Program-made: the position numbers and the translations under genes
Notes under the pieces: generated by a model
What the model was told of the DNA's origin: nothing
Seen by the model: the letters and a program-made list of their open reading frames with translations, nothing else
The model's database searches: none
In this document: piece after piece, positions 16,492 through 35,383 of the stretch
How positions within the stretch are numbered: position 1 is the first letter of the stretch
Layout of the letters: each line of letters opens with the position of its first letter
Virus record (IMG/VR): IMGVR_UViG_3300031521_000016
Coordinates: 1-35,894 of that record
Source: a virus
Direction: 5' to 3' (one strand)
DNA: 35,894 nt

Positions 16492-17238
16492 ATGAAACTA
16501 ACTGATGAACAAACAGAATTTCTTAATAAAGTATGTGATCATAAATGGACAGAAAAAGACGGTTTAGTTGAGGTAGATGGTAACGTATCTATTATTAGTT
16601 ACAAATATCCTAGGCTTCCCGTAATGTTTGGTACAGTTTCAGGTATGTTTAAAATGACTAACTGTATGGTCGAATCTTTAGATGGATTTCCAACTTACAT
16701 AGGCAATAAATGTCTTTTAACGAATATAGATGTAACTGAAATAGTAAATCTATGCAAAGTGAAATACAGAATTGTCATAAATACTTGTAAGAAACTAAAG
16801 AAGATAAAAAATTTACACGCTGAAACTATTTCTATCACATTCTGTGACGTACTGGAAAAAATTGAATTAGAAGAATCAGTTGTAGATACATTTAGTATTG
16901 CAGATTGCAAAAAGATAAAAAATTTACACGGATTTCCTAAAACTGTGACTAAAATGTTCAATATTTATCAATGTGAAGGTTTAGAAGACTTATCAGGGAC
17001 TATAGAACATACTGATACATTTAGAGTATCTGATTGTAAGAAATTGCGTTCAGGTAAAGGAGCTTGTAAGAACGCTAATAAATATGATATAGATCTACGT
17101 TTAATAAATAATATTGATGAACTTAAACTGTATCGCGATGACGATATCTATGCTCAATGGCTACATTCTGGAGAACCAGCTGAAGGTTTCTTGGAGAAAA
17201 AAAGAGGATTCATATTGGGAAGAAAGTTTGGCTTCTAA
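16492..17238 (+). CDS. FGF-tagged leucine-rich-repeat-like protein, 248 aa
   Basis: Rightward gene beginning MKLTDEQTEFLNKVCDHKWT. Residues about 40-200 form irregular 20-25-residue repeats with the pattern L-x-x-L/I-x-G-F-P and repeated cores such as SIADCKKIKNLHGF, NIYQCEGLEDLSG and RVSDCKKLRSGKG, like the LRR proteins found in many phages (recalled, not searched). The end is QWLHSGEPAEGFLEK, then KRGFILGRKFGF. The LRR part should be a binding surface; the tag is separate from it. It ends tail to tail with tagged gene 17235-17507 (4-nt overlap). Confidence 0.78.
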   Translation: MKLTDEQTEFLNKVCDHKWTEKDGLVEVDGNVSIISYKYPRLPVMFGTVSGMFKMTNCMVESLDGFPTYIGNKCLLTNIDVTEIVNLCKVKYRIVINTCKKLKKIKNLHAETISITFCDVLEKIELEESVVDTFSIADCKKIKNLHGFPKTVTKMFNIYQCEGLEDLSGTIEHTDTFRVSDCKKLRSGKGACKNANKYDIDLRLINNIDELKLYRDDDIYAQWLHSGEPAEGFLEKKRGFILGRKFGF

Positions 17239-17507
17239 AACCCGAACCGTTTAGCTACTATTTCTCCTCTTATTTTAAGTAAGAAAGCATCTAAACTTAA
17301 ATGACAATTTTCTTTATTTTTCCACTTCACGTAATTTTCTGGACTTAAATCACTCTGTGCAAACTCTTTAAGTATATTCTGTGCAATTTGATATTGATCA
17401 TTTGAAGTGAAATGTAGATATACGTCACCTGTATAAAATTCTACTCTGCCAAATAACACTATAGTAGCTGATCGTAAATCTGATACTAATAATGTGAAAT
17501 CGACCAT
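17235..17507 (-). CDS. FGF-tagged short protein between two LRR-like genes, 90 aa
   Basis: The start is ATG 17507 (MVDFTLLVSDLRSATIVLFG); longer frames run antisense through the 17523 gene and are rejected. It ends IRGEIVAKRFGF, with Ala at the Ser/Gly position. The body is a small beta domain (GRVEFYTGDVYLHF) followed by helices. Its start is only 15 bp from the rightward gene at 17523. No CGTTTT promoter is visible, only a weak TATTTTTA at about 30 nt upstream. Confidence 0.7.
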   Translation of the reverse strand: MVDFTLLVSDLRSATIVLFGRVEFYTGDVYLHFTSNDQYQIAQNILKEFAQSDLSPENYVKWKNKENCHLSLDAFLLKIRGEIVAKRFGF

Positions 17508-17522
17508 AATAAAAAGTAAAAA

Positions 17523-18173
17523 ATGAATAAAAATACAATTCGTAAATTTAATAAACAGATGACTACAATAAAGGGTGCAGTTATGATAACTGAAGAGTCT
17601 TTTAAAAAGGGAATAGCTACAGTTACAAGAATATTGAATGATGGAAAAGAACATAAGATCGTCTTGCCTCTGCCAAGTTTGTCTGGTGCTATAATTGATG
17701 GTAACTATGAATACTATGTAAGTGGAGCGGACATAAAACATGCACCGTTGACTGTGTCGAAACAGATAAACATAGGCTACAATAAATTAGAGTCTCTTAA
17801 AAATTGTCCTGATACTTGTGAATCAATAAACTTATCTTCTATTGAATCTCTAAAAACTTTGCATGGTATATCTAAATATATCGAATCTGAATTGAATATC
17901 AGAGACTGTAAAGATATTGAATCATTAGATGGCTCTCCATCCGAAGTACAATACTTTATATTATTTAATGTACCAAAATTGAAAACATTAAAATTTGCTC
18001 CTATTGCTGATACCTACAGAATCTTAAAATGTCCCGATGTACCAGATGAAGAAATAGATTTAAGCAAAAATGATAAAGAGTTATTTCATAAATGGTTAAA
18101 GTCAGGTGAAGACTTTAAAGATTTCATGTATAAGAAAAGAGGTATAACCCTCGGTAAAAAATTTGGGTTTTAA
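17523..18173 (+). CDS. FGF-tagged leucine-rich-repeat-like protein, up to 216 aa
   Basis: Paralogue of 16492-17238. The LRR-like part includes INIGYNKLESLKNCPD, NIRDCKDIESLDGSP and KLKTLKFAP. The end is KWLKSGEDFKDFMYK, then KRGITLGKKFGF, the same extended module as its paralogue. The start is uncertain: ATG 17523 leaves only 15 bp to the divergent gene, while ATG 17583, with AAAGGG about 8 nt ahead, gives a protein starting MITEESFKKG that aligns better with the paralogue. A strong bidirectional terminator follows. Confidence 0.76.
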   Translation: MNKNTIRKFNKQMTTIKGAVMITEESFKKGIATVTRILNDGKEHKIVLPLPSLSGAIIDGNYEYYVSGADIKHAPLTVSKQINIGYNKLESLKNCPDTCESINLSSIESLKTLHGISKYIESELNIRDCKDIESLDGSPSEVQYFILFNVPKLKTLKFAPIADTYRILKCPDVPDEEIDLSKNDKELFHKWLKSGEDFKDFMYKKRGITLGKKFGF

Positions 18174-18194
18174 ATAAAACCTTTATAACAAAAC

Positions 18195-18237
18195 AAAAAA
18201 CCCATGACATATAATCGAGTATATTGTCATGGGTTTT
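18195..18237. terminator. Bidirectional rho-independent terminator
   Basis: Between convergent genes 17523-18173 (+) and 18258-19085 (-). AAAACCCATGACATATA pairs with its reverse complement (one bulged T) across a 6-nt loop ATCGAG, giving a stem of about 17 bp flanked by A-rich and T-rich runs on the two sides, so it can act in both directions. Confidence 0.85.
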
Positions 18238-18257: not shown

Positions 18258-19085
18258 TTATGAATTTAGCATATCTGTTTTTATTTTCGATACTAATTCC
18301 AAATGAGCTGGTCCAAACGGAGTCCATGCAATACCCATTTCTTTAAGATCATATTTTTGAACTACTGTACTATAATCGGTTACTCCTTCTGGATGTCCAA
18401 TTAAATAAATAACATCGGCTAATTCGGTAGCAAGATGTAAATCATGAGTTGAAAAAATGATAGTATTTAATTCATCACTTGATTGAATTAATTCGAAAGC
18501 CTCTTTTACACTTTCAATATTTCCAACATCTAAACCAGAAAATGGTTCGTCGAATATCATGAAATGCTTTGATGTAAGAAGCTGTTCAATAATTGCTGTA
18601 CGTTGTCTTTGACCACCGGATAACTCGCAAGGGTATTTATCTTTATGTTCGATTAGTCCCCATTTGGTTAACTGTTCATCGATAAGTTTCGTTTTTTCTT
18701 CTTTTGGTAACATACATTTTTTCAGTGCATAGAACATGATTTGATTCACTGTCTTATGTCTAAATAATGTATATTTTTGATCAACAAAACCTACATCTCC
18801 TTCAGCTACTTCTTTAGCAGCTTCTGGTTGTCCAGGCATTGAAGTAGAAATTAAAACTCTTCCGGAAATTGGTTTATCAAGTCCAGATAAAGCTCTGAAT
18901 AATGTAGATTTTCCTCTTCCAGAGCGTCCTACTACAGCTATAACTTGTCCAGTGGCTTTGACACCTTCACGAACCACATCTTTTTCGACAATCGTAACAT
19001 TTTTCAAAACACCTTTTCCACTATAACCGACTGAAATATTGTCGAGATAGAAAATTGTCTGTTTAAGTTCGTAATTATAGCTCAT
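18258..19085 (-). CDS. ABC transporter ATP-binding protein (nitrate/sulfonate/taurine importer type), 275 aa
   Basis: All ABC ATPase motifs are present: Walker A GRSGRGKST (53-61), Q-loop at Gln103 (VDQKYTLF), signature LSGGQRQR (155-162), Walker B HFMIFDE (174-180), D-loop SGLD, and switch His214 (STHD). The order and length fit the SsuB/TauB/NrtD-like group, assigned mainly from the partner permease and binding protein. It overlaps the permease gene by 4 nt (ATGA). It would power import from the cytoplasmic face. The substrate cannot be told from sequence. It looks intact. Confidence 0.9.
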   Translation of the reverse strand: MSYNYELKQTIFYLDNISVGYSGKGVLKNVTIVEKDVVREGVKATGQVIAVVGRSGRGKSTLFRALSGLDKPISGRVLISTSMPGQPEAAKEVAEGDVGFVDQKYTLFRHKTVNQIMFYALKKCMLPKEEKTKLIDEQLTKWGLIEHKDKYPCELSGGQRQRTAIIEQLLTSKHFMIFDEPFSGLDVGNIESVKEAFELIQSSDELNTIIFSTHDLHLATELADVIYLIGHPEGVTDYSTVVQKYDLKEMGIAWTPFGPAHLELVSKIKTDMLNS

Positions 19086-19855
19086 ATTTTTGAAAATCTA
19101 AAAGACATTTTACGTATTGAAGTTAGAATATAGTCAAGGAGTATACCGATTGATAGAATAATGATCTGTAATGCAATAACCCTTCCTTGATTACCTAACT
19201 TATCTGAATTTTTAATTAGAAATCCTAAACCTCCGGCTGCAGCTAATAAACTTTCAACCGTTATTAGCATCATCCAAACGATAGCCAAATTTTGTCGAAT
19301 ACTTTCGATTACATAGTCGAATCTTCCTTTTATGACAACTTCATAAAGAATTTCCCATCTACTGCAACCTAATGCTCTGGCATGGTCAAATTCCTCTTGT
19401 GGAATATCTTTGATGACACCTAATATAGAAGTTGCAAAGAACGTACTCATGAATACCACGAGGATAGATACTTGTGTTATTCTGGCATCCGATATCAAAA
19501 TAGATAAGTAGAATGCGATACCTGCAAGAGGTAAGTATCTAAACTTTGAAATAAATGAAGAGATCGGTTGTAAAATTGGAACAGGTGATAAATAACAAAA
19601 TGATAATGAAAATAAGACCGATATTAAAACAGCTTGACCACATAGTGATAAAGAGCTTCCGATATGAACAGTTAAACCTTCATTCCATAATGCACCGAAA
19701 CCTTCTAAGACTTGAATTGGCGTTGGAAAAATGTGCGTTTGACCAATGTAGCTTGATGTGACCCAAAGAGTAAGAATAGAAATTAACCATCCTAAGCGGA
19801 TGGTTAATTCTGTGGAACTCTTTATTTTTTCAAAAGGGCTTAATATTCCTTTCAT
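19082..19855 (-). CDS. ABC transporter permease (SsuC/TauC-like BPD family), 257 aa
   Basis: About six hydrophobic segments (near residues 19-38, 67-90, 107-122, 127-147, 190-212 and 226-245). The EAA-loop that docks the ATPase is visible as EEFDHARALGCSRWEILYEV (154-173), with the conserved A-x-x-L-G-x-S. It begins in a 1-nt overlap with the stop of the substrate-binding gene and overlaps the ATPase gene by ATGA, so the three are one operon. Length is typical for the family. The N-terminus lacks a cleavable signal. Confidence 0.88.
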   Translation of the reverse strand: MKGILSPFEKIKSSTELTIRLGWLISILTLWVTSSYIGQTHIFPTPIQVLEGFGALWNEGLTVHIGSSLSLCGQAVLISVLFSLSFCYLSPVPILQPISSFISKFRYLPLAGIAFYLSILISDARITQVSILVVFMSTFFATSILGVIKDIPQEEFDHARALGCSRWEILYEVVIKGRFDYVIESIRQNLAIVWMMLITVESLLAAAGGLGFLIKNSDKLGNQGRVIALQIIILSIGILLDYILTSIRKMSFRFSKI

Positions 19856-21663
19856 TATTTCATGATGTTAATTTCGCATCTACGATTCTTTGCTCTACCA
19901 GCTGCCGTTACATTAGTTGCAATAGGGTTGGCTTCACCTAATCCATCGACCTTTTGGAAACGTGTTTCATCGATGCCTTTATTAGCAAGATATGTTTGAA
20001 CCGCTTTAGCTCGTTGTTTAGATAGAGTTAAGTTTGTGTTATCATCTCCTGCATTATCAGTATACCCGGTGATTACTACTTTAGAATGTTCTCCTTGAAC
20101 CAATAGGCCGTAGATAATTTCTAGTTCTTTTGTACCGATTATGTTAGCAGAACCTGAAGCGAAATTGATTTGCCATTGTCCTGATGCCATAACTGTAGTT
20201 TGTGTAGCAGTATAGTCTTGTTTTGTTACAGAACCGGCATCTACATCGGTGATAGATTTTAAGAAGTATAAATTCACAGCTTCTGAATAAGGAATGATAC
20301 CACCTTTTACAGATTCATTAAAGCCACATGGATTTAATTCTACAAGATATTTAGAAATTTGTTCATATACTGTCTTGTATCTATTTGTACCATCGGTTAG
20401 TCCAAAGTATTGCATTGCATCAGCATAATTCAATGCTCTTGTTCCACCGATATTGTATTGTACTCCGGCTTTTGTTTTATGAATACCTTTGAACATTGTA
20501 TACCAGTATTCAGGAGATTCAAAGTTGTAAGTTTTACATACAACTTCTGATCCGAATCGTGCCCATTCATCATATTGTTTTACTTGGTTAGAAGCAGTAT
20601 ATGCATTCTTTAAAAGTGCTACGACTTGTTTTTCATGTGCCACTGCCCATTCTTTAACTACTACAATAGAAGTTGCCATTTGATTAGTGAACTCTTTAGT
20701 TGAGATTACATCTGTATATCCTGATAAAGCATCGAATGCAATTTTATCTCCCGGAGTCCATGTGGTAGCACCATTGATTTTGATATTTACTGTGTTACCA
20801 GTCAATTTACCATCTTTTACTTCTTTAAGTGGAACAGTAAAACCTGTGTTTTGTGATTTAATAAGCTCTTTTACAGAGTTGATATAGTCATCATTTTCAG
20901 AAGGAGTAAAGTTGATAGCATCAGGGTCATATGTTTTTACATCCGGATTAACTTTGATGTTATTAGCAAAGGCAAAGTTGATAGCTACTACCCAGTCACC
21001 ATCTCCTACTACTGATGAAATAAGACAACCTTTCATTAATTGTGGATTTTTCTTCCATGCATCTGGTCCGATTAATTTATCTTCACCGTCCGACATTCCA
21101 ATTGCTCCAATATTTTGTAAGTGATACTTATCTTTACCGAATTTATCGTTTAAAGCCTGTTGACCGGTTGCTATATAAAATGGAACACCATCACCCATGA
21201 TAGATACTGCGAATGCCGATTTGTCAGCATCTGGGTATTCTTTACCGGCTGCTAGTTCTTCTACGAACTTAAGTTGCATATTACGTAAATCCGATACTCC
21301 GTCGATACGTACAATTTCTAAATTAAGGTCGGATGCTTCATTTAATGATCCTTTTGTAGTACGAGGTCCACCATTAGCAGCAATCATTCCGATGTTTCCG
21401 TTCCATGCATATTCGGCGATACGAATAAGTGGTTTCTTTGCGGCCGAAGTAGAAGGAGTTTGTGAAGGGGTTTCAAGTTTTGCAGCTTTTTGCATGTTAT
21501 CGATATGATCTTTACTCAACGATAATCCAGCAAGTCTTTTAGCTGCATCAATACGAAGTCCCGGTGAAAGCCATGCGATGGCACCTAATACAATTGCTAA
21601 ACCGATTGTTACAATGACTGCTTCAGCACCACTGGTCAATTTAGTCTTTAAAATTTTTCCCAT
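19855..21663 (-). CDS. ABC substrate-binding protein fused to an OmpA-type peptidoglycan-binding domain, 602 aa
   Basis: Residues 14-32 are a membrane segment with no clear cleavage site, so it is probably anchored. Residues about 70-480 resemble a periplasmic binding protein of the nitrate/sulfonate/phosphate-like kind (an RIAEYAWNGNIGMIAANGG start, SIVVVKEWAVAHEKQVVALL in the second lobe). Residues about 495-602 are an OmpA C-terminal domain: GYTDNAGDD, LSKQRAKAVQTYL, GLGEANPIATN and GRAKNRRCEI, which includes the Asp and Arg positions that bind peptidoglycan. It would tie the importer to the cell wall. It follows the promoter at 21712-21746. Confidence 0.85.
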   Translation of the reverse strand: MGKILKTKLTSGAEAVIVTIGLAIVLGAIAWLSPGLRIDAAKRLAGLSLSKDHIDNMQKAAKLETPSQTPSTSAAKKPLIRIAEYAWNGNIGMIAANGGPRTTKGSLNEASDLNLEIVRIDGVSDLRNMQLKFVEELAAGKEYPDADKSAFAVSIMGDGVPFYIATGQQALNDKFGKDKYHLQNIGAIGMSDGEDKLIGPDAWKKNPQLMKGCLISSVVGDGDWVVAINFAFANNIKVNPDVKTYDPDAINFTPSENDDYINSVKELIKSQNTGFTVPLKEVKDGKLTGNTVNIKINGATTWTPGDKIAFDALSGYTDVISTKEFTNQMATSIVVVKEWAVAHEKQVVALLKNAYTASNQVKQYDEWARFGSEVVCKTYNFESPEYWYTMFKGIHKTKAGVQYNIGGTRALNYADAMQYFGLTDGTNRYKTVYEQISKYLVELNPCGFNESVKGGIIPYSEAVNLYFLKSITDVDAGSVTKQDYTATQTTVMASGQWQINFASGSANIIGTKELEIIYGLLVQGEHSKVVITGYTDNAGDDNTNLTLSKQRAKAVQTYLANKGIDETRFQKVDGLGEANPIATNVTAAGRAKNRRCEINIMK

Positions 21664-21709
21664 GTTTTTGTTTTTAAATGATTATTTTTTAATATGAATT
21701 ATTTTATGA

Positions 21710-21764
21710 TACAAAAATAATACAATTACGTCTATTTGCAAAACGTAATTGTATTATTTTTGTA
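21710..21764. repeat. Perfect 21-bp inverted repeat over a promoter
   Basis: Left arm 21710-21730 and right arm 21744-21764 are exact reverse complements, with a 13-nt loop (21731-21743). On the minus strand the downstream arm carries the promoter spacer and the -7 element; the loop carries most of the -33 box. It may double as a terminator for the 21771-22877 transcript, since the stem is followed by T-rich sequence, or serve as an operator (inference). Confidence 0.87.
21712..21746 (-). promoter_or_regulatory. Phage promoter, CGTTTT-N20-TATTTTTG class (P9) for the ABC operon
   Basis: Minus strand: ACGTTTT (21746-21740), 20-nt spacer, TATTTTTG (21719-21712), TATCATAAAATAA. The leader to ATG 21663 is about 43 nt, longer than at other copies. 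It places the ABC importer under the same class of control as the tagged-gene units. Confidence 0.82.
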
Positions 21765-21770
21765 AATATT

Positions 21771-22877
21771 TTAGAAAATGCTTCCTAATGAACCGAGAGA
21801 ATCTTTATCAGTAGATGATAATTTATAGTCAGGGTTATTATACTTTTTAGTATCAGTAGTTGCTTTTTCTCCGGCAGTAATACTATTTGCCAACTTATCA
21901 AGATTAGCATAAAGATCATCACTATTTAAGTTATAGTCTTTAGTAGCAGTATCGATATCCTGAAGATTAGTTGTAGTTATTGCAATATCGGCAGTAATTG
22001 CACTTGATACACATTCGATAGCATACTCAACTTCCCAACCGGTAGTAAATAAGATAGCATCTTTTGCTGCAGTCGTAGCATCTTTCGATTTTTCAGCAAA
22101 GTCATAATCACGTTTTAGCATATCTACTGTAGCATCGAAGTCAGCAATTTTGATATCCATAGAAGTTGCCACCATAGTCAATTTTTGACCAAGTTTCTTC
22201 ATGATAGTTGCACGAGACATGTATTTCTGTACAAAATTCTGTTCTTGTTCTAATTGAGCGGCTAAACGTGTACTTTTAGAAACAAGGGTAAGAAGTTCAG
22301 CGCTATCATTAACATAGTCATCTTCCTCTTTAGCTTTTACACCACCTTCTAAAAATCGTCTATCTAAGTCATCATGAAGAGCTTTTGCTTGATCTCGTAA
22401 TCTAACGATTTCTTTTAGATCTTTTTCAGCATCTCTTTCATTTTTCTTAGCTTCTACTTCCATATCTCTTCGGAGATTTTCAATTTTAGCTTTAGAAAGA
22501 TAAAATTTATCTCTATTTGCGAGTAAACCTACTCGTTTATTTGCTAATTCACCGAGTGGATCATATTGTATAATCGATTTATGAATAGCTCTAGTTAATA
22601 ATCGTAAGCCTCTGATGATATTTGGTATCATCATAATTACAAATACAAGAAATGCACCGGTAGCTACTAATGCAATAGCCTTGCCAAGATATATGAAAAG
22701 TGGTGGTAGAACATATTTGAAGATAAGGAATCCAGCGAGTCCAAATACAGCTAGTTTAATAAACCAGAAGAGATTTTTTTCACCTTTTCGGAATACGTCT
22801 ACTTGTTTAGTTACATTCTCAGGAAAGTGTTGCATAAAAGGCAACTGTTGCAAACCATTACTTACATTGTTTGTCAT
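21771..22877 (-). CDS. Membrane-anchored coiled-coil protein associated with the ABC module, 368 aa
   Basis: Begins MTNNVSNGLQQLPFMQHF. Two membrane helices at about residues 36-55 and 64-84 precede a long charged helical region (about 105-260: NLRRDMEVEAKKNERDAEKD, EIVRLRDQAKALHDDLDRRF), typical of coiled coils. The tail is Asp/Thr/Ser-rich and ends SLGSLGSIF. The architecture recalls PspA/TelA-type membrane-stress partners, but no signature motif is certain. It lies between 22892-23617 and the importer genes, read in the same direction. Confidence 0.7.
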   Translation of the reverse strand: MTNNVSNGLQQLPFMQHFPENVTKQVDVFRKGEKNLFWFIKLAVFGLAGFLIFKYVLPPLFIYLGKAIALVATGAFLVFVIMMIPNIIRGLRLLTRAIHKSIIQYDPLGELANKRVGLLANRDKFYLSKAKIENLRRDMEVEAKKNERDAEKDLKEIVRLRDQAKALHDDLDRRFLEGGVKAKEEDDYVNDSAELLTLVSKSTRLAAQLEQEQNFVQKYMSRATIMKKLGQKLTMVATSMDIKIADFDATVDMLKRDYDFAEKSKDATTAAKDAILFTTGWEVEYAIECVSSAITADIAITTTNLQDIDTATKDYNLNSDDLYANLDKLANSITAGEKATTDTKKYNNPDYKLSSTDKDSLGSLGSIF

Positions 22878-22891
22878 CTTTTTATTTTATT

Positions 22892-23617
22892 TTAGATTGT
22901 TGAAAGATTATTTTTTACTTTTACTAATGAAGTCGTAATATGTTCTTTTGCCATATCGTTAGCTGCGAGCTTTAATTTTATTTCATTAAGCTCAGGATCA
23001 AATTTACTATCGATAGTGGCAAGTTCGGCTGTTTTATTTCCGAGTTGAGTTTGCAACGTTGATATTTGTTCAGTCAATGACTGAATATCGGTAGTTAAAT
23101 TCCGGGTGTCTGTTTCCTTTTGAGTAGCTATTGCAGCTGCTTTTAAATTCCCATCAGTATCGAAAGTTGTGTGAATGTTGTCGATCTCCTTGATATAAAA
23201 ATCGGCTTGTTCCAATAAAGTTTCTTTCGTTACAGATTTGTCCATTCTTACGGCCATTCCAAGTCCCATAGTATAAACTTGTGGATTATCTATACCCATT
23301 TCTGATACAGATTGGTAGAACTCGAAGAAGTCGTATCCAGGTTGATTTAATGCTTCAAACCTCTTATCATATACCTCAATAATTTTATCCATAAATGGAT
23401 TACCTACCTGTGTAGGTTGAGGTTGTGAAAATGATGTTGCAGCTGGTGGAACAAATGATGTTGCAGCCGGTGTAACGGGGAATGAAGTCGCAGAGGGAGC
23501 AGCAGTAGTAACGGGAAATGAAGTTACTGGTGGGGCAGGTGTTGCTTTTACTTTAGCTTCTTCTTCTGCTGCTGGGGCTTCAAAAATTGCATTTTTAATA
23601 ATGTCTTTAAAACTCAT
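22892..23617 (-). CDS. Pro/Ala-rich plus coiled-coil protein associated with the ABC module, 241 aa
   Basis: Begins MSFKDIIKNAIFEAPAAEEE. Residues about 25-70 are a Pro/Ala/Thr linker with repeats such as TSFPVT and AATSF. Then comes a globular helical part (DKIIEVYDKRFEALNQPGYD, FEFYQSVSEMG) and a coiled coil (about 170-235: LTTDIQSLTEQISTLQTQLG). No membrane segment; likely a cytoplasmic partner of the membrane coiled-coil protein 15 nt downstream. A possible promoter with TATATTTG at 23672-23665 (minus strand) precedes it, without the CGTTTT box. Confidence 0.7.
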   Translation of the reverse strand: MSFKDIIKNAIFEAPAAEEEAKVKATPAPPVTSFPVTTAAPSATSFPVTPAATSFVPPAATSFSQPQPTQVGNPFMDKIIEVYDKRFEALNQPGYDFFEFYQSVSEMGIDNPQVYTMGLGMAVRMDKSVTKETLLEQADFYIKEIDNIHTTFDTDGNLKAAAIATQKETDTRNLTTDIQSLTEQISTLQTQLGNKTAELATIDSKFDPELNEIKLKLAANDMAKEHITTSLVKVKNNLSTI

Positions 23618-23688
23618 CGTTAATTATTTTTGGTGGATTATTTTTTTGAATTAGATAAATATAACAAATATACACGCTTAGAAAAAAT

Positions 23689-24741: not shown

Positions 24742-25041
24742 TTATTTTGTATGAGTATCAACAAACCGATCAATATCTTTTGCTTCCTGATCGACGTATG
24801 CAGTTTCTTCATTTTTTGCAAAGTCATCCTTTAGTAATTGTAATATTGTCTTGGCATGTTTTCGTTTTCTATTTTGCTTTGTATTCAGAAGATTGAACAG
24901 TTTTACTTTAGTAGTATCATTAACTTCATCTAGCCCTTCAATGCATAATTTACCGTCTTCTTCATACACATATATTTTCTGTAAAGTTACGACAAATATA
25001 CCTGAAACATCTCTTACACTTTTTACTTTTGTTAGGCTCAT
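24742..25041 (-). CDS. Hypothetical charged protein, 99 aa
   Basis: Begins MSLTKVKSVRDVSGIFVVTL. A short beta N-terminus (FVVTLQKIYVYEEDGKLCIE) is followed by a basic helical section (LNTKQNRKRKHAKTILQLL) and an acidic end, DIDRFVDTHTK. No motif recognised. It starts in an ATGA overlap with the YqeY gene, so is co-expressed with it. Confidence 0.65.
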   Translation of the reverse strand: MSLTKVKSVRDVSGIFVVTLQKIYVYEEDGKLCIEGLDEVNDTTKVKLFNLLNTKQNRKRKHAKTILQLLKDDFAKNEETAYVDQEAKDIDRFVDTHTK

Positions 25042-25487
25042 GATACTAATCTTGAAATTACTTCTTTAACTTTAGTTATATCAGCTCTACCCATGAAGCG
25101 TTTATTGAATTCACCCATAGTTTTTCCTCTACGTGCATTTTCATTTGGCAGACCAGAAAATTCCTGTGCTATTTTTGTTATAGCTTCTTCTATTTCAGTG
25201 TCAGTTAATGCAGCTGGAAGATATTTCTTCATTTCTGCTGCTTCTGCTAGTTCTGCTTCTGCAAGGTCAGGACGAGATTGTTCAATGTAGATTTTAGCAC
25301 TTTCTTCACGTTGCGTCATAGCTTTTGTTATGACTTTGATGACATCCTCATCAGTAGCTTCTACATTTTTTTCTTTCTCAAACTCTACTATTTTTGCTTT
25401 AATACCGCTGAGTGATAGTTTAGCAACTGAGTCTTTGTTCTTCATAGCAAGGATAAAATCTTGCTGTATAAGTTCTTTTAGTGTCAT
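25038..25487 (-). CDS. yqeY: YqeY / GatB-tail domain protein, 149 aa
   Basis: The whole protein follows the YqeY family: an N-terminal helix MTLKELIQQDFILAMKNKD, the central TDEDVIKVITKAMTQREESA, AEMKKYLPAALTDTEIEEAI and the C-terminal GKTMGEFNKRFMGRAD. Length is normal (about 148 aa). The family shares a fold with the GatB C-terminal domain that contacts tRNA; its exact role in bacteria is not settled. It is flanked by hypothetical phage genes with ATGA overlaps on both sides. A role in translation or tRNA handling is inference. Confidence 0.88.
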   Translation of the reverse strand: MTLKELIQQDFILAMKNKDSVAKLSLSGIKAKIVEFEKEKNVEATDEDVIKVITKAMTQREESAKIYIEQSRPDLAEAELAEAAEMKKYLPAALTDTEIEEAITKIAQEFSGLPNENARRGKTMGEFNKRFMGRADITKVKEVISRLVS

Positions 25488-33230: not shown

Positions 33231-33433
33231 ATATTAAACTTTTCTATGATTCTTGAATGATAAACTTTTGCCATCTGTTTAGATTCTCTTAAGACTTGTT
33301 TCAGATGATTATGTGGGCAGTCATTGCATGGATCATCTGCGTCGCATCCAGCTATACTCTCCATGTCACATAATGCAACAATACCCCACTCAAACCAATA
33401 TACAGGTGTGAGTTTATGTTCTATTCTATCCAT
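33227..33433 (-). CDS. Small Cys-rich hypothetical protein, 68 aa
   Basis: Begins MDRIEHKLTPVYWFEWGIVA. The middle has CDMESIAGCDADDPCNDCPH, four Cys and a His within 20 residues, a probable metal site. A basic helix follows (HLKQVLRESKQMAKVYHSRI). It overlaps the epimerase gene by 8 nt. No family recognised. Confidence 0.68.
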   Translation of the reverse strand: MDRIEHKLTPVYWFEWGIVALCDMESIAGCDADDPCNDCPHNHLKQVLRESKQMAKVYHSRIIEKFNI

Positions 33434-34430
33434 GTTGTAATGTTTTCAAAATTTCTAGAAACTTCTTAGAAGAAGTTCCGTCTCCGTATGGACATGCATA
33501 GTTTATATCAAAAGTTAATATATGCGTGTCAAAAGAAGATTTCAGATCATTTACTAAAAATGAACTTTTACCCAATGATTCTTCTCTTTCGGTCGAAGTT
33601 CTACAAACTAAACATTTTTTATTTAGAAAGCTACACTCTTCTTGTATACCACCTGAATCTGTAATAACAAGCTTACACTGAACTAGAATGTCTAACAAGT
33701 CTTTATGCGAAAGTGGATCTATGACATTTACTTTCTTAAAAATACTAGCATGCTTGCGTATTTCAGGACTTGGATGCATAGGAAAGATAAATTCTAACTG
33801 CGGATAGTCATTAGCTAAATCCTCAATTTCTGCACATAAGAATTTGAATACTCTTTGATTTTCTCTTCTATGTAAAGTTATAAGTACTTTATTGTCATAT
33901 ACACATTTGTCTTTATACGGTAGAAGATTATCTATACTAGTATTCCCGATTACGTATGCTGATCCTTTAATCCTTTCCCTTTTGAGATTAGATAAATTAG
34001 CTTCAGTAGGACATAAATGAATGTTAGTGATATGCGATATCATTCTTCTGTATGGTTCTTCAGGCCATGGAGTAGTTGTATATGTACGTAAGCCAGCTTC
34101 TAGATGTATCACATTTATTCCATTATTAAAAGCAGATAACGCAACTGCAAATGCCGATGCCGTATCACCTTGTACTAAAATATGATCAATTTTATGTTCG
34201 CTTTGTATTACATCTATAAAATTTGAACTTACTATTTTACCGATGATACTATCTAATCGATTATTGATAGATGCTTTATAATCGATTCTATAATCATATC
34301 TGAAATCAGCTAGTGTTGTATGTTGATTAGTATGTAAGATTTTAAATGGATAGTTTGATTTTTCTAATAAGTCAATTATTGGTGATATCTTTAAAAATTC
34401 TGGACGGGTACCGTATGTAAGGAGGATCAT
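33426..34430 (-). CDS. wecB: UDP-N-acetylglucosamine 2-epimerase (WecB-type), 334 aa
   Basis: Conserved segments of the non-hydrolysing epimerase family are all present: TYGTRPEFLK (5-14), VQGDTASAFA (87-95), HLEAGLRTY (109-117), LHRREN (186-191) and DSGGIQEE (258-265). The length is slightly shorter than cellular enzymes (about 370 aa). It would interconvert UDP-GlcNAc and UDP-ManNAc. It is directly coupled (ATGA) to a GT2 glycosyltransferase, pointing to sugar decoration of a host or virion component; the target is unknown. Confidence 0.88.
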   Translation of the reverse strand: MILLTYGTRPEFLKISPIIDLLEKSNYPFKILHTNQHTTLADFRYDYRIDYKASINNRLDSIIGKIVSSNFIDVIQSEHKIDHILVQGDTASAFAVALSAFNNGINVIHLEAGLRTYTTTPWPEEPYRRMISHITNIHLCPTEANLSNLKRERIKGSAYVIGNTSIDNLLPYKDKCVYDNKVLITLHRRENQRVFKFLCAEIEDLANDYPQLEFIFPMHPSPEIRKHASIFKKVNVIDPLSHKDLLDILVQCKLVITDSGGIQEECSFLNKKCLVCRTSTEREESLGKSSFLVNDLKSSFDTHILTFDINYACPYGDGTSSKKFLEILKTLQHG

Positions 34431-35383
34431 TTGAAAATAGTTTTAGTTAAAGATTGAATTTGGACAAAATATTGTCTTGCAGCTTCAATTGTCTGACTAC
34501 AAGGAACAATTTGCTTAAGTCCATGAAAATTATTTGTGATGAAATGATCAGTTCTCAAATTGTCTGCTAAATCTCTTGCTTTCTCTATAGAATCTGGCCA
34601 AGACAACATACTTCTATTAAATTCGAATTTTGAAGCTGTGTCGGACATGCGTTGATCATGTCCTCTTTTCACATAGACTAAATCTTTCATAGCATAATAC
34701 TTGAGACCTAGATACTCACATTTGCCTAAGAATTCTAAATCATCTCCTTTTGACATTTCAACACGAAGTCGTGAGTGATCAATTTTAAGTACAGATGATT
34801 TTCTTAGAGCAAATGGCAAAGATATGATTTGAATATTATCTCTAGAACAATGTACTATCGATGTATAGGGCATACCGTTCAATTCATGTGTATTGAACCT
34901 AAATTTTGTATGATTGTCATTAAAGTATGGCGCCCAAAAGTTGGTACATATTAACTCTTGTGGATATTTAGCTTCTATGAATCGTTCTACATTTCCATTA
35001 TTATCGATCATTACAGATGAACCGTACATGAAGTCTAAATTTGAATACTGTACGAATTTATCCACATATTTCTCTATTGCATCAGGTAAAAGTACATCAT
35101 CAGAATCAGGAAAGAAAAGGATTTCACCATCCGCAAAAAGATGCGAAATCCATTTCATTCTGAATATTCGAGTAGGGTCATCGCAATAAAAATACTTGAC
35201 TGTTCGTTTCGAAATTCGTTCGAATTCTTTTATGATAAGCTTTGTATTATCGTCTGACCCGTCATCGAGTATGTAAAGATCAAACTTTCTATACGTTTGA
35301 TCTAAAAGTGATGTGAAAAATTCCGTTATGTATTGTCCCATATTCCATGTAGGAACTATGATTGATACAAGAGGCTGATTCAT
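34427..35383 (-). CDS. Family 2 (GT-A fold) glycosyltransferase, 318 aa
   Basis: The GT-A nucleotide-sugar-binding start VSIIVPTWNMGQYI is followed by DLYILDDGSDDNT (35-47) and the metal-binding FFPDSDD (90-96), as in GT2 enzymes. No membrane segment is clear, so probably soluble in the cytoplasm. It overlaps the epimerase gene by 4 nt, suggesting that it uses the epimerase product, though its donor cannot be read from sequence. The C-terminal 100 residues are family-unspecific. Confidence 0.88.
   Translation of the reverse strand: MNQPLVSIIVPTWNMGQYITEFFTSLLDQTYRKFDLYILDDGSDDNTKLIIKEFERISKRTVKYFYCDDPTRIFRMKWISHLFADGEILFFPDSDDVLLPDAIEKYVDKFVQYSNLDFMYGSSVMIDNNGNVERFIEAKYPQELICTNFWAPYFNDNHTKFRFNTHELNGMPYTSIVHCSRDNIQIISLPFALRKSSVLKIDHSRLRVEMSKGDDLEFLGKCEYLGLKYYAMKDLVYVKRGHDQRMSDTASKFEFNRSMLSWPDSIEKARDLADNLRTDHFITNNFHGLKQIVPCSQTIEAARQYFVQIQSLTKTIFK

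What the first reader, a model, noticed from the sequence alone, without database searches (positions are those of the whole stretch)
18258..23617. Complete phage-encoded ABC importer with a peptidoglycan-tethered binding protein and coiled-coil partners
Intact ATPase, permease and a 602-aa binding protein carrying both an N-terminal anchor and an OmpA-type C-terminal domain, driven by the phage promoter class, plus two coiled-coil genes, one with two membrane helices, directly upstream. Phages often carry single binding proteins such as PstS; a full importer is unusual. It could raise uptake of a scarce nutrient, but the rigid tether and membrane-stress-like partners also allow an envelope-sensing or superinfection role (inference).
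Basis: partly seen in the sequence, partly recalled or inferred. Interest (0 to 1): 0.72.

Follow-up and report, generated by a model that had tools for sequence, protein, structure and literature searches.

The report
Megaphage-borne peptidoglycan-tethered ABC importer module
This very large virus of Bacteroidota bacteria carries a complete, working-looking five-gene cell-envelope machine (an ABC importer whose binding protein is tied to the cell wall, plus two helical partner proteins) taken from bacteria, and the same machine turns up in several other unrelated giant phages, so it probably helps them during infection rather than being a stray gene.

Summary
At 18258-23617 (minus strand) lie five intact genes: cc241 (coiled coil), TM368 (two membrane helices, long helical hairpin), a 602-aa binding protein (inner-membrane anchor, TauA/CmpA-like domain, OmpA-like peptidoglycan domain), a permease and an ATPase with all motifs. 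It is not a mis-assembly. The same order occurs in 27 of 31 viral loci, LR756500 (462 kb), the 735-kb phage LR756501 and Prevotella Lak phages; Bacillus phage G has the five components in cyclically permuted order. All five genes are under purifying selection. The window's viral copies form one clade nested inside Bacteroidota chromosomal copies, so they came from a bacterial operon. Ravi et al. 2024 predicted that operon (PspA/Snf7-like protein, AAA+, ABC ATPase, permease, PBP-OmpA) to link membrane remodelling with solute transport; I found no paper reporting it in phages. Of ten phage records checked only phage G has the AAA+ gene. Best reading: a captured host envelope-maintenance module built on a NitT/TauT-class importer. 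The ligand, and whether TM368 is truly ESCRT-III/PspA, are not shown. Import alone is the main rival. Side finding: a C-terminal RG-x(4-5)-KFGF tag on 19 proteins of this phage.

The parts
22892..23617 (-). cc241: soluble protein with a Pro-rich N-terminus, a conserved helical domain (about 73-150) and a C-terminal coiled coil; first gene of the module
   Evidence: ORF; first in order in viral and Bacteroidota copies; HMM matches to the Lak (E=1.5e-15) and 735-kb phage (E=2.8e-14) counterparts
21771..22877 (-). TM368: two membrane helices, long helical hairpin, conserved C-terminal tail (Y-x-NP-x-Y ... GG ... F); PspA/Snf7-like in layout, family membership not proven
   Evidence: ORF, hydropathy and tail conservation, AF2 model pLDDT 67 overall with a confident hairpin, fold search inconclusive
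19855..21663 (-). SBP: inner-membrane anchor (15-33), NitT/TauT-class periplasmic binding domain (about 75-480), OmpA-like peptidoglycan-binding domain (about 490-602, D536 and R551 invariant)
   Evidence: AF2 pLDDT 88; VIA-align Z=26.0 to TauA, 24.9 to CmpA, 18.1 to the TagL peptidoglycan domain
19082..19855 (-). ABC permease (BPD_transp_1, TauC/SsuC class) with EAA loop
18258..19085 (-). ABC ATPase; Walker A GRSGRGKST, Q-loop, LSGGQ, Walker B, D-loop and H-loop all intact
23665..23672 (-). promoter-like -7 element TATATTTG 48 nt upstream of cc241
   Evidence: pattern match, function inferred
21710..21764 (-). 22-bp perfect inverted repeat (terminator or attenuator) between TM368 and SBP; overlaps a TTTG-N19-TATTTTTG promoter-like site (-7 box 21712-21719)
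   Evidence: dG -27.3, z -9.6; most other viral copies examined have TAnnTTTG 42-58 nt before the SBP start
18193..18235 (-). intrinsic terminator after the ATPase
   Evidence: dG -17.1, z -5.6

Best explanation
It is a captured bacterial envelope module. The binding protein is anchored in the inner membrane, its Venus-flytrap domain sits in the periplasm, and its OmpA domain grips peptidoglycan. It therefore holds a NitT/TauT-class importer (permease and ATPase dimers) at a fixed place between membrane and wall. TM368, with a PspA-like membrane-proximal helical hairpin, and cc241 form a scaffold at the cytoplasmic face of the membrane. During the long infection by a giant phage the module both imports a small solute and keeps the overloaded inner membrane intact. 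Shown: all parts, motifs, fold classes, conservation of the set, purifying selection and bacterial origin. Inferred: import direction and ligand class (from family), physical coupling of TM368 and cc241 to the importer (from conserved linkage), and the benefit to the phage.
For: Catalytic and structural motifs are the same in viral and bacterial copies. The binding domain fits TauA/CmpA/SsuA (Z 22.9-26.0) and the C-terminus fits peptidoglycan-binding domains. Gene order cc-TM-SBP-permease-ATPase is kept in 27 of 31 viral loci and in most Bacteroidota chromosomal copies. The same order with diverged homologs occurs in LR756501 (735 kb) and Lak, with HMM support for cc and TM. Phage G and relatives have permease-ATPase-cc-TM-SBP, and there all 16 TM proteins scanned match PspA_IM30, best E=1.9e-9. 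dN/dS is about 0.01-0.25 for all five genes in informative pairs. One viral clade (SH-aLRT 99) lies within Bacteroidota. Ravi et al. 2024 independently proposed membrane remodelling coupled to solute transport for the bacterial operon (PMC11237479).
Against: No experiment exists. The ligand is unknown. TM368 itself has no Pfam PspA/Snf7 match in any of 40 members, and its hairpin scores no better than generic coiled coils. The AAA+ partner of the bacterial operon is not found in the window's record, which is a fragment, or in eight other phages checked. Some Saprospiraceae-type loci, and one viral locus (L021), have the transport genes without recognisable cc and TM genes next to them, so the partners can be separated from the transporter.
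Confidence: 0.5

Rival explanations
1. Auxiliary metabolic importer only: the phage boosts uptake of one scarce NitT/TauT-class solute (sulfonate, bicarbonate/nitrate-like anion, thiamine or cofactor precursor). The OmpA tether and coiled-coil proteins are accessory.
For: Intact importer and TauA/CmpA/SsuA-like binding domain. Viral and bacterial binding domains share the same invariant residues, so the ligand is probably unchanged. Three-gene loci without the partners exist in some bacteria and in viral locus L021.
Against: cc and TM genes are retained, in order and under purifying selection, in nearly all viral copies and in distant phage groups. Hosts as different as Bacteroidota and Bacillus would all need the same solute.
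Confidence: 0.28
2. Peptidoglycan-tension or envelope sensor or regulator: the ATPase cycle and the wall tether transmit wall or membrane state to TM368/cc241, in the manner of FtsEX or MotB-type tethers, with little net import.
For: TM anchor plus OmpA domain resembles MotB-type tethers. Coiled-coil membrane partners.
Against: The permease is a type I importer (BPD_transp_1), not FtsX-like. The solute-binding fold is complete and its conserved loops are invariant.
Confidence: 0.13
3. Superinfection exclusion or defence: the module alters the envelope to block other phages.
For: Envelope location. Weak PADLOC matches only to ZorB through the shared OmpA domain.
Against: No defence family is matched as a whole. 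Flavobacterium copies lie among housekeeping genes such as ATP synthase.
Confidence: 0.07
4. Assembly artefact or recent random host DNA.
For: The closest cellular relatives are bacterial operons.
Against: One viral clade with many independent contigs, T4-type portal in the record, purifying selection.
Confidence: 0.02

Closest known systems
Bacterial PspA/Snf7 - AAA+ - ABC - PBP-OmpA operon (Ravi et al. 2024, mSystems, PMC11237479)
   Same: [quoted passage not shown] Bacteroidota chromosomal copies found here are 51-67% identical over the SBP and often carry an AAA+ gene next door.
   Different: Virus-borne; no AAA+ gene found in the Bacteroidota-phage records searched; TM368 not shown to be PspA/Snf7. 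The section of that paper that I read does not mention phages.
NitT/TauT-class ABC importers (TauABC, SsuABC, CmpABCD, NrtABCD)
   Same: ATPase, permease and binding-domain fold.
   Different: Binding protein fused to a TM anchor and an OmpA-like wall-binding domain; linked to two coiled-coil genes; ligand unknown.
Bacillus phage G gp243, gp245-247, gp249, gp250
   Same: Same five components, in cyclically permuted order; both SBPs carry an OmpA domain and gp249 matches NMT1; the phage also has an AAA+ 41% identical to the Flavobacterium one (gp596).
   Different: SBP only distantly related to the window's; two SBP copies; Gram-positive host; TM protein is PspA_IM30-related.
Phage-borne single binding proteins such as PstS in cyanophages (from general knowledge)
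   Same: Phage-carried uptake component.
   Different: Here permease and ATPase are included, and a wall tether and envelope partners are part of the set.

Membership tests
ABC importer, NitT/TauT class | ATPase with Walker A/B, LSGGQ, Q, D and H loops | tested here: met
   All present and conserved in 29 viral and 76 bacterial copies
ABC importer, NitT/TauT class | BPD_transp_1 permease with EAA loop | tested here: met
   PF00528 E=7e-11; SaoP and TauC best subfamily hits, below their cut-offs; EAA-type loop at 154
ABC importer, NitT/TauT class | Binding protein of TauA/CmpA/NMT1 fold | tested here: met
   VIA-align Z=26.0, rmsd 3.3, 291 residues to TauA; CmpA, SsuA and NrtA next. By sequence the window SBP has no Pfam NMT1 match, but Lak and phage G homologs do
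ABC importer, NitT/TauT class | Transports a defined solute | not testable with these tools
   Needs a binding or uptake assay
OmpA-like peptidoglycan-binding domain | Fold and the Asp/Arg pair that binds diaminopimelate | tested here: met
   PF00691 E=1.1e-16; Z=18.1 to TagL and 16.1 to the A. baumannii OmpA domain; D536 and R551, 15 residues apart, invariant. That this is the ligand pair rests on general knowledge
ESCRT-III / PspA superfamily (for TM368) | Significant profile match to PspA_IM30 or Snf7 | tested here: not met
   None among 40 members in Pfam, so TM368 is not filed as a member. The positional counterpart in phage-G-type modules matches PspA_IM30 in 16 of 16 (best 1.9e-9), but its profile links to TM368 only weakly (P=0.006)
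ESCRT-III / PspA superfamily (for TM368) | Long alpha1-alpha2/3 hairpin fold | tested here: inconclusive
   AF2 model has a long helical hairpin; Vipp1, CdvB and CHMP1B appear only at the level of generic coils
Ravi et al. PspA/Snf7-AAA-ABC-OmpA operon | AAA+ ATPase in the operon | tested here: not met
   No AAA+ of the Flavobacterium type in the window record or eight other phages checked; phage G has one elsewhere in its genome
Ravi et al. PspA/Snf7-AAA-ABC-OmpA operon | ABC ATPase, permease and PBP-OmpA protein linked to a TM-bearing helical protein | tested here: met
Zorya (ZorB) | ZorA partner and MotB-like ZorB | tested here: not met
   Only the OmpA domain matches ZorB (E=1e-9); the protein is an SBP with ABC partners

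The most novel reading that the evidence does not exclude
Unrelated giant phages (T4-like Bacteroidota phages, the 735-kb phage, Lak phages, phage G and relatives) have each acquired and kept a phage-encoded 'phage-shock'-type machine: a membrane-remodelling helical scaffold coupled to a wall-tethered importer. It maintains the envelope of a host cell that must stay intact while a 400-700 kb genome is replicated and packaged, so it is a recurrent requirement of phage gigantism.
Probability: 0.3. Interest if true: 0.85.

Novelty: new variant of a known kind. Interest (0 to 1): 0.62.

Why it matters
A complete importer plus envelope scaffold retained across deeply diverged huge phages points to a shared physiological problem of giant phages that a review and a survey of jumbo phages do not discuss (PMC13282480, PMC13037316: no occurrence of 'transporter' or 'phage shock'). 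It also makes an uncharacterised bacterial operon testable, because phage G is an isolated phage with a known Bacillus host and carries the set. If the benefit is envelope maintenance, it gives a concrete gene set for asking how cells survive long giant-phage replication.

Tried and rejected
Toxic-anion (TelA) idea for TM368: no Pfam TelA match; PF05816 found nothing in the window record, though Lak has a TelA elsewhere. PspA_IM30 in the window record: nothing. PADLOC: only cross-matches. FtsEX/EnvC or PcsB-like regulator: seen among coiled-coil fold matches, rejected because the permease is a type I importer. Rfam: nothing in the window. A closer bacterial donor for the 735-kb/Lak type was sought in 296 Bacteroidota genomes: mostly OmpA-domain matches only. 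Terminase PF03237 gave no hit in the window record; the T4-type portal settled it. Fraction of related phages carrying the set: of three newly reached contigs of at least 200 kb with a related portal, two carry it and one (362 kb) does not, so it is common but not universal; the sample is small. A first portal scan with the window's own portal found only two short contigs. A fetch of E. coli pspA as a yardstick missed the gene and was not repeated. Literature: no paper found describing the module in phages; only open-licence papers were searched.

Full report
Where it is. The window is bases 1-35894 of a 140,106-base IMG/VR record. The record has a T4-type portal gene at 91.4-92.6 kb (PF07230, E=1.7e-64), as do LR756500 (462 kb) and three large related contigs. 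The window also holds a phage-type dNMP kinase and a thymidylate synthase. So this is probably a fragment of a huge T4-like phage of a Bacteroidota host (host inferred from promoters, gene origin and relatives).

The observation. The five ORFs are intact and in the order cc241, TM368, SBP (602 aa), permease, ATPase on the minus strand. SBP-permease and permease-ATPase overlap by 1 and 4 bases, as in translationally coupled genes. All ATPase motifs and the permease EAA loop are present, and they are conserved alike in viral and bacterial copies. A strong terminator follows the ATPase, and a 22-bp perfect hairpin lies between TM368 and SBP. TAnnTTTG, the Bacteroidetes -7 element (general knowledge), is enriched in the window and lies 48-49 nt before cc241 and before the SBP. 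Most other viral copies examined have it 42-58 nt before their SBP. I therefore read two transcription units, cc241-TM368 and SBP-permease-ATPase.

The binding protein. AlphaFold2 on a 47-sequence alignment gives pLDDT 88 (the model starts at residue 2 because the reference was trimmed by one codon). Residues about 74-480 align with TauA (Z 26.0, rmsd 3.3, 291 residues), CmpA, NrtA and SsuA. Residues about 490-602 align with peptidoglycan-binding domains (TagL Z 18.1; A. baumannii OmpA domain Z 16.1). D536 and R551, at the spacing of the diaminopimelate-binding pair of OmpA domains (general knowledge), are invariant in the viral copies, the bacterial copies and the 735-kb phage copy. A single N-terminal hydrophobic helix (15-33) with lysines before it implies an inner-membrane anchor with the rest in the periplasm.

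The partners. TM368 has two hydrophobic helices, then a long two-helix hairpin (high confidence there, pLDDT 67 overall) and a poorly ordered C-terminus ending in a conserved motif. The hairpin resembles PspA/ESCRT-III in layout, and Vipp1, CdvB and CHMP1B occur among the fold matches, but at the level of any coiled coil. No PspA or Snf7 profile matches any of 40 family members. I do not file it as ESCRT-III. cc241 is soluble, with a conserved central domain, and is related to the Lak and 735-kb phage counterparts (HMM E=1.5e-15 and 2.8e-14).

Not an artefact, and not one phage's accident. A scan of viral contigs found 31 loci. In 27 the five genes stand in the same order; three others are cut by the contig end; in one (L021) no cc or TM gene is recognisable within 6 kb upstream. 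L023 has a shortened permease frame. The INPHARED collection adds LR756500 (67% identity). The 735-kb phage LR756501 has the same order with a 528-aa SBP at about 25-28% identity, and so do Prevotella Lak phages. Bacillus phage G has permease gp243, ATPase gp245, coiled coil gp246, TM protein gp247 and two SBP-OmpA proteins gp249/gp250. That order is a cyclic permutation. 25 viral contigs, phage G's own among them, encode phage-G-type SBPs with this layout, though cc is not recognisable in two; several have a terminase. In the phage-G type the TM protein is a PspA/IM30 relative: 16 of 16 match PF04012, best E=1.9e-9. Pairwise dN/dS in the window's group is about 0.01-0.25 for all five genes in informative pairs. 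Not every relative has the set: a 362-kb contig with a related portal lacks it.

Origin. Full-length chromosomal homologs (51-67% identity) occur in Flavobacteriaceae, Saprospiraceae and Chitinophagaceae, mostly as the same five-gene operon. About half of the loci (43 of 80) also have an AAA+ ATPase gene in the neighbourhood (Pfam), and in Flavobacterium the operon can lie beside ATP synthase genes. In a tree of SBP+permease+ATPase the 28 viral rows are one clade (SH-aLRT 99) inside Bacteroidota, next to Flavobacterium (support 82) (quick method, no bootstrap). The window groups with LR756500 and contig G007, whose modules are identical to each other; the G007 portal is 43% identical to that of the window's record. 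Portals of the wider viral group have diverged to about 20% while SBPs stay near or above 60%, which fits strong constraint or exchange between phages. In a sample of 198 Bacteroidota genomes drawn around a Flavobacterium chosen because it has the operon, only three others had a related binding domain. The module is therefore rare in potential hosts, and the phage copy is not simply duplicating a common host function.

What is known. Ravi et al. [quoted passage not shown] The section does not mention phages. Jug phages carry pspA-like and terD genes (PMC12363816). A review and a survey of jumbo phages do not mention transporters or phage shock. What is new here is that the full importer module is virus-borne, recurrent in several huge-phage groups, under selection, and in the window's phage without the AAA+ gene (the window record is a fragment, but the far larger records LR756500, LR756501 and Lak-A1 also lack a match). 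Phage G has an AAA+ 41% identical to the Flavobacterium one (gp596).

How it most likely works. Shown: parts, motifs, folds, conservation, origin. Inferred: the SBP captures a NitT/TauT-class solute while tethered between membrane and wall, delivers it to the permease, and TM368/cc241 scaffold the cytoplasmic face and stabilise the membrane in a cell that is kept alive for a long replication. I put about 0.5 on import plus envelope maintenance, 0.28 on import alone, 0.13 on a sensor or regulator, 0.07 on superinfection exclusion and 0.02 on artefact.

Verdict. Its rarity was overstated (phage G had one annotated in part) and its partners are better explained by a known bacterial operon. The recurrence in unrelated megaphages is the interesting part.

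Noticed in passing
window ORFs ending at 2469, 2900, 3339, 3620, 4337, 4847, 5537, 8573, 10241, 12415, 15478, 17235, 23689 (minus), 17238 and 18173 (plus); record positions 86031, 102522, 135946, 136449 (minus): 19 of 631 mechanical ORFs (at least 40 aa) of this 140-kb phage record end in [KR][FY]G[FL], mostly within RG-x(4-5)-KFGF at the very C-terminus, on otherwise unlike proteins of 93-248 aa; background in all other loci held is 2 of 8925. It looks like a C-terminal tag or small terminal domain (targeting, packaging or partner binding). Not seen in related phage loci.
   Followed up: partly
window 16492-17238 and 17523-18173 (+): Two leucine-rich-repeat-like genes on the plus strand, against the run of the region, directly downstream of the module; both carry the KFGF tag. 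An antisense ORF at 17235-17741 also ends in RFGF, which may be chance.
   Followed up: partly
window 33426-34430 and 34427-35383 (-): UDP-GlcNAc 2-epimerase (WecB, above the NCBIfam cut-off) next to a TuaG-type glycosyltransferase: a surface-sugar gene pair in the phage.
   Followed up: no
window 25038-25487 (-): YqeY-like gene upstream of the module.
   Followed up: no
MK250016.1 (Lak-A1) 447220-448191: Lak phage encodes a TelA homolog (E=2.3e-69) far from its importer module.
   Followed up: no
JN638751 gp596 and gp569: Phage G carries an AAA+ 41% identical to the one beside the Flavobacterium operon, and a second weakly PspA-like protein.
   Followed up: partly
L035, L058: Module on MAG contigs labelled uncultured bacterium and Limnohabitans (Pseudomonadota). 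L035 is 67% identical to the window SBP and may be a phage contig. L058 groups with Flavobacterium but has phage-like wide spacing. Likely mis-binned.
   Followed up: no
window 21710-21764: The 22-bp hairpin between TM368 and SBP overlaps the SBP promoter-like site, so it could be a switch between read-through and re-initiation.
   Followed up: partly
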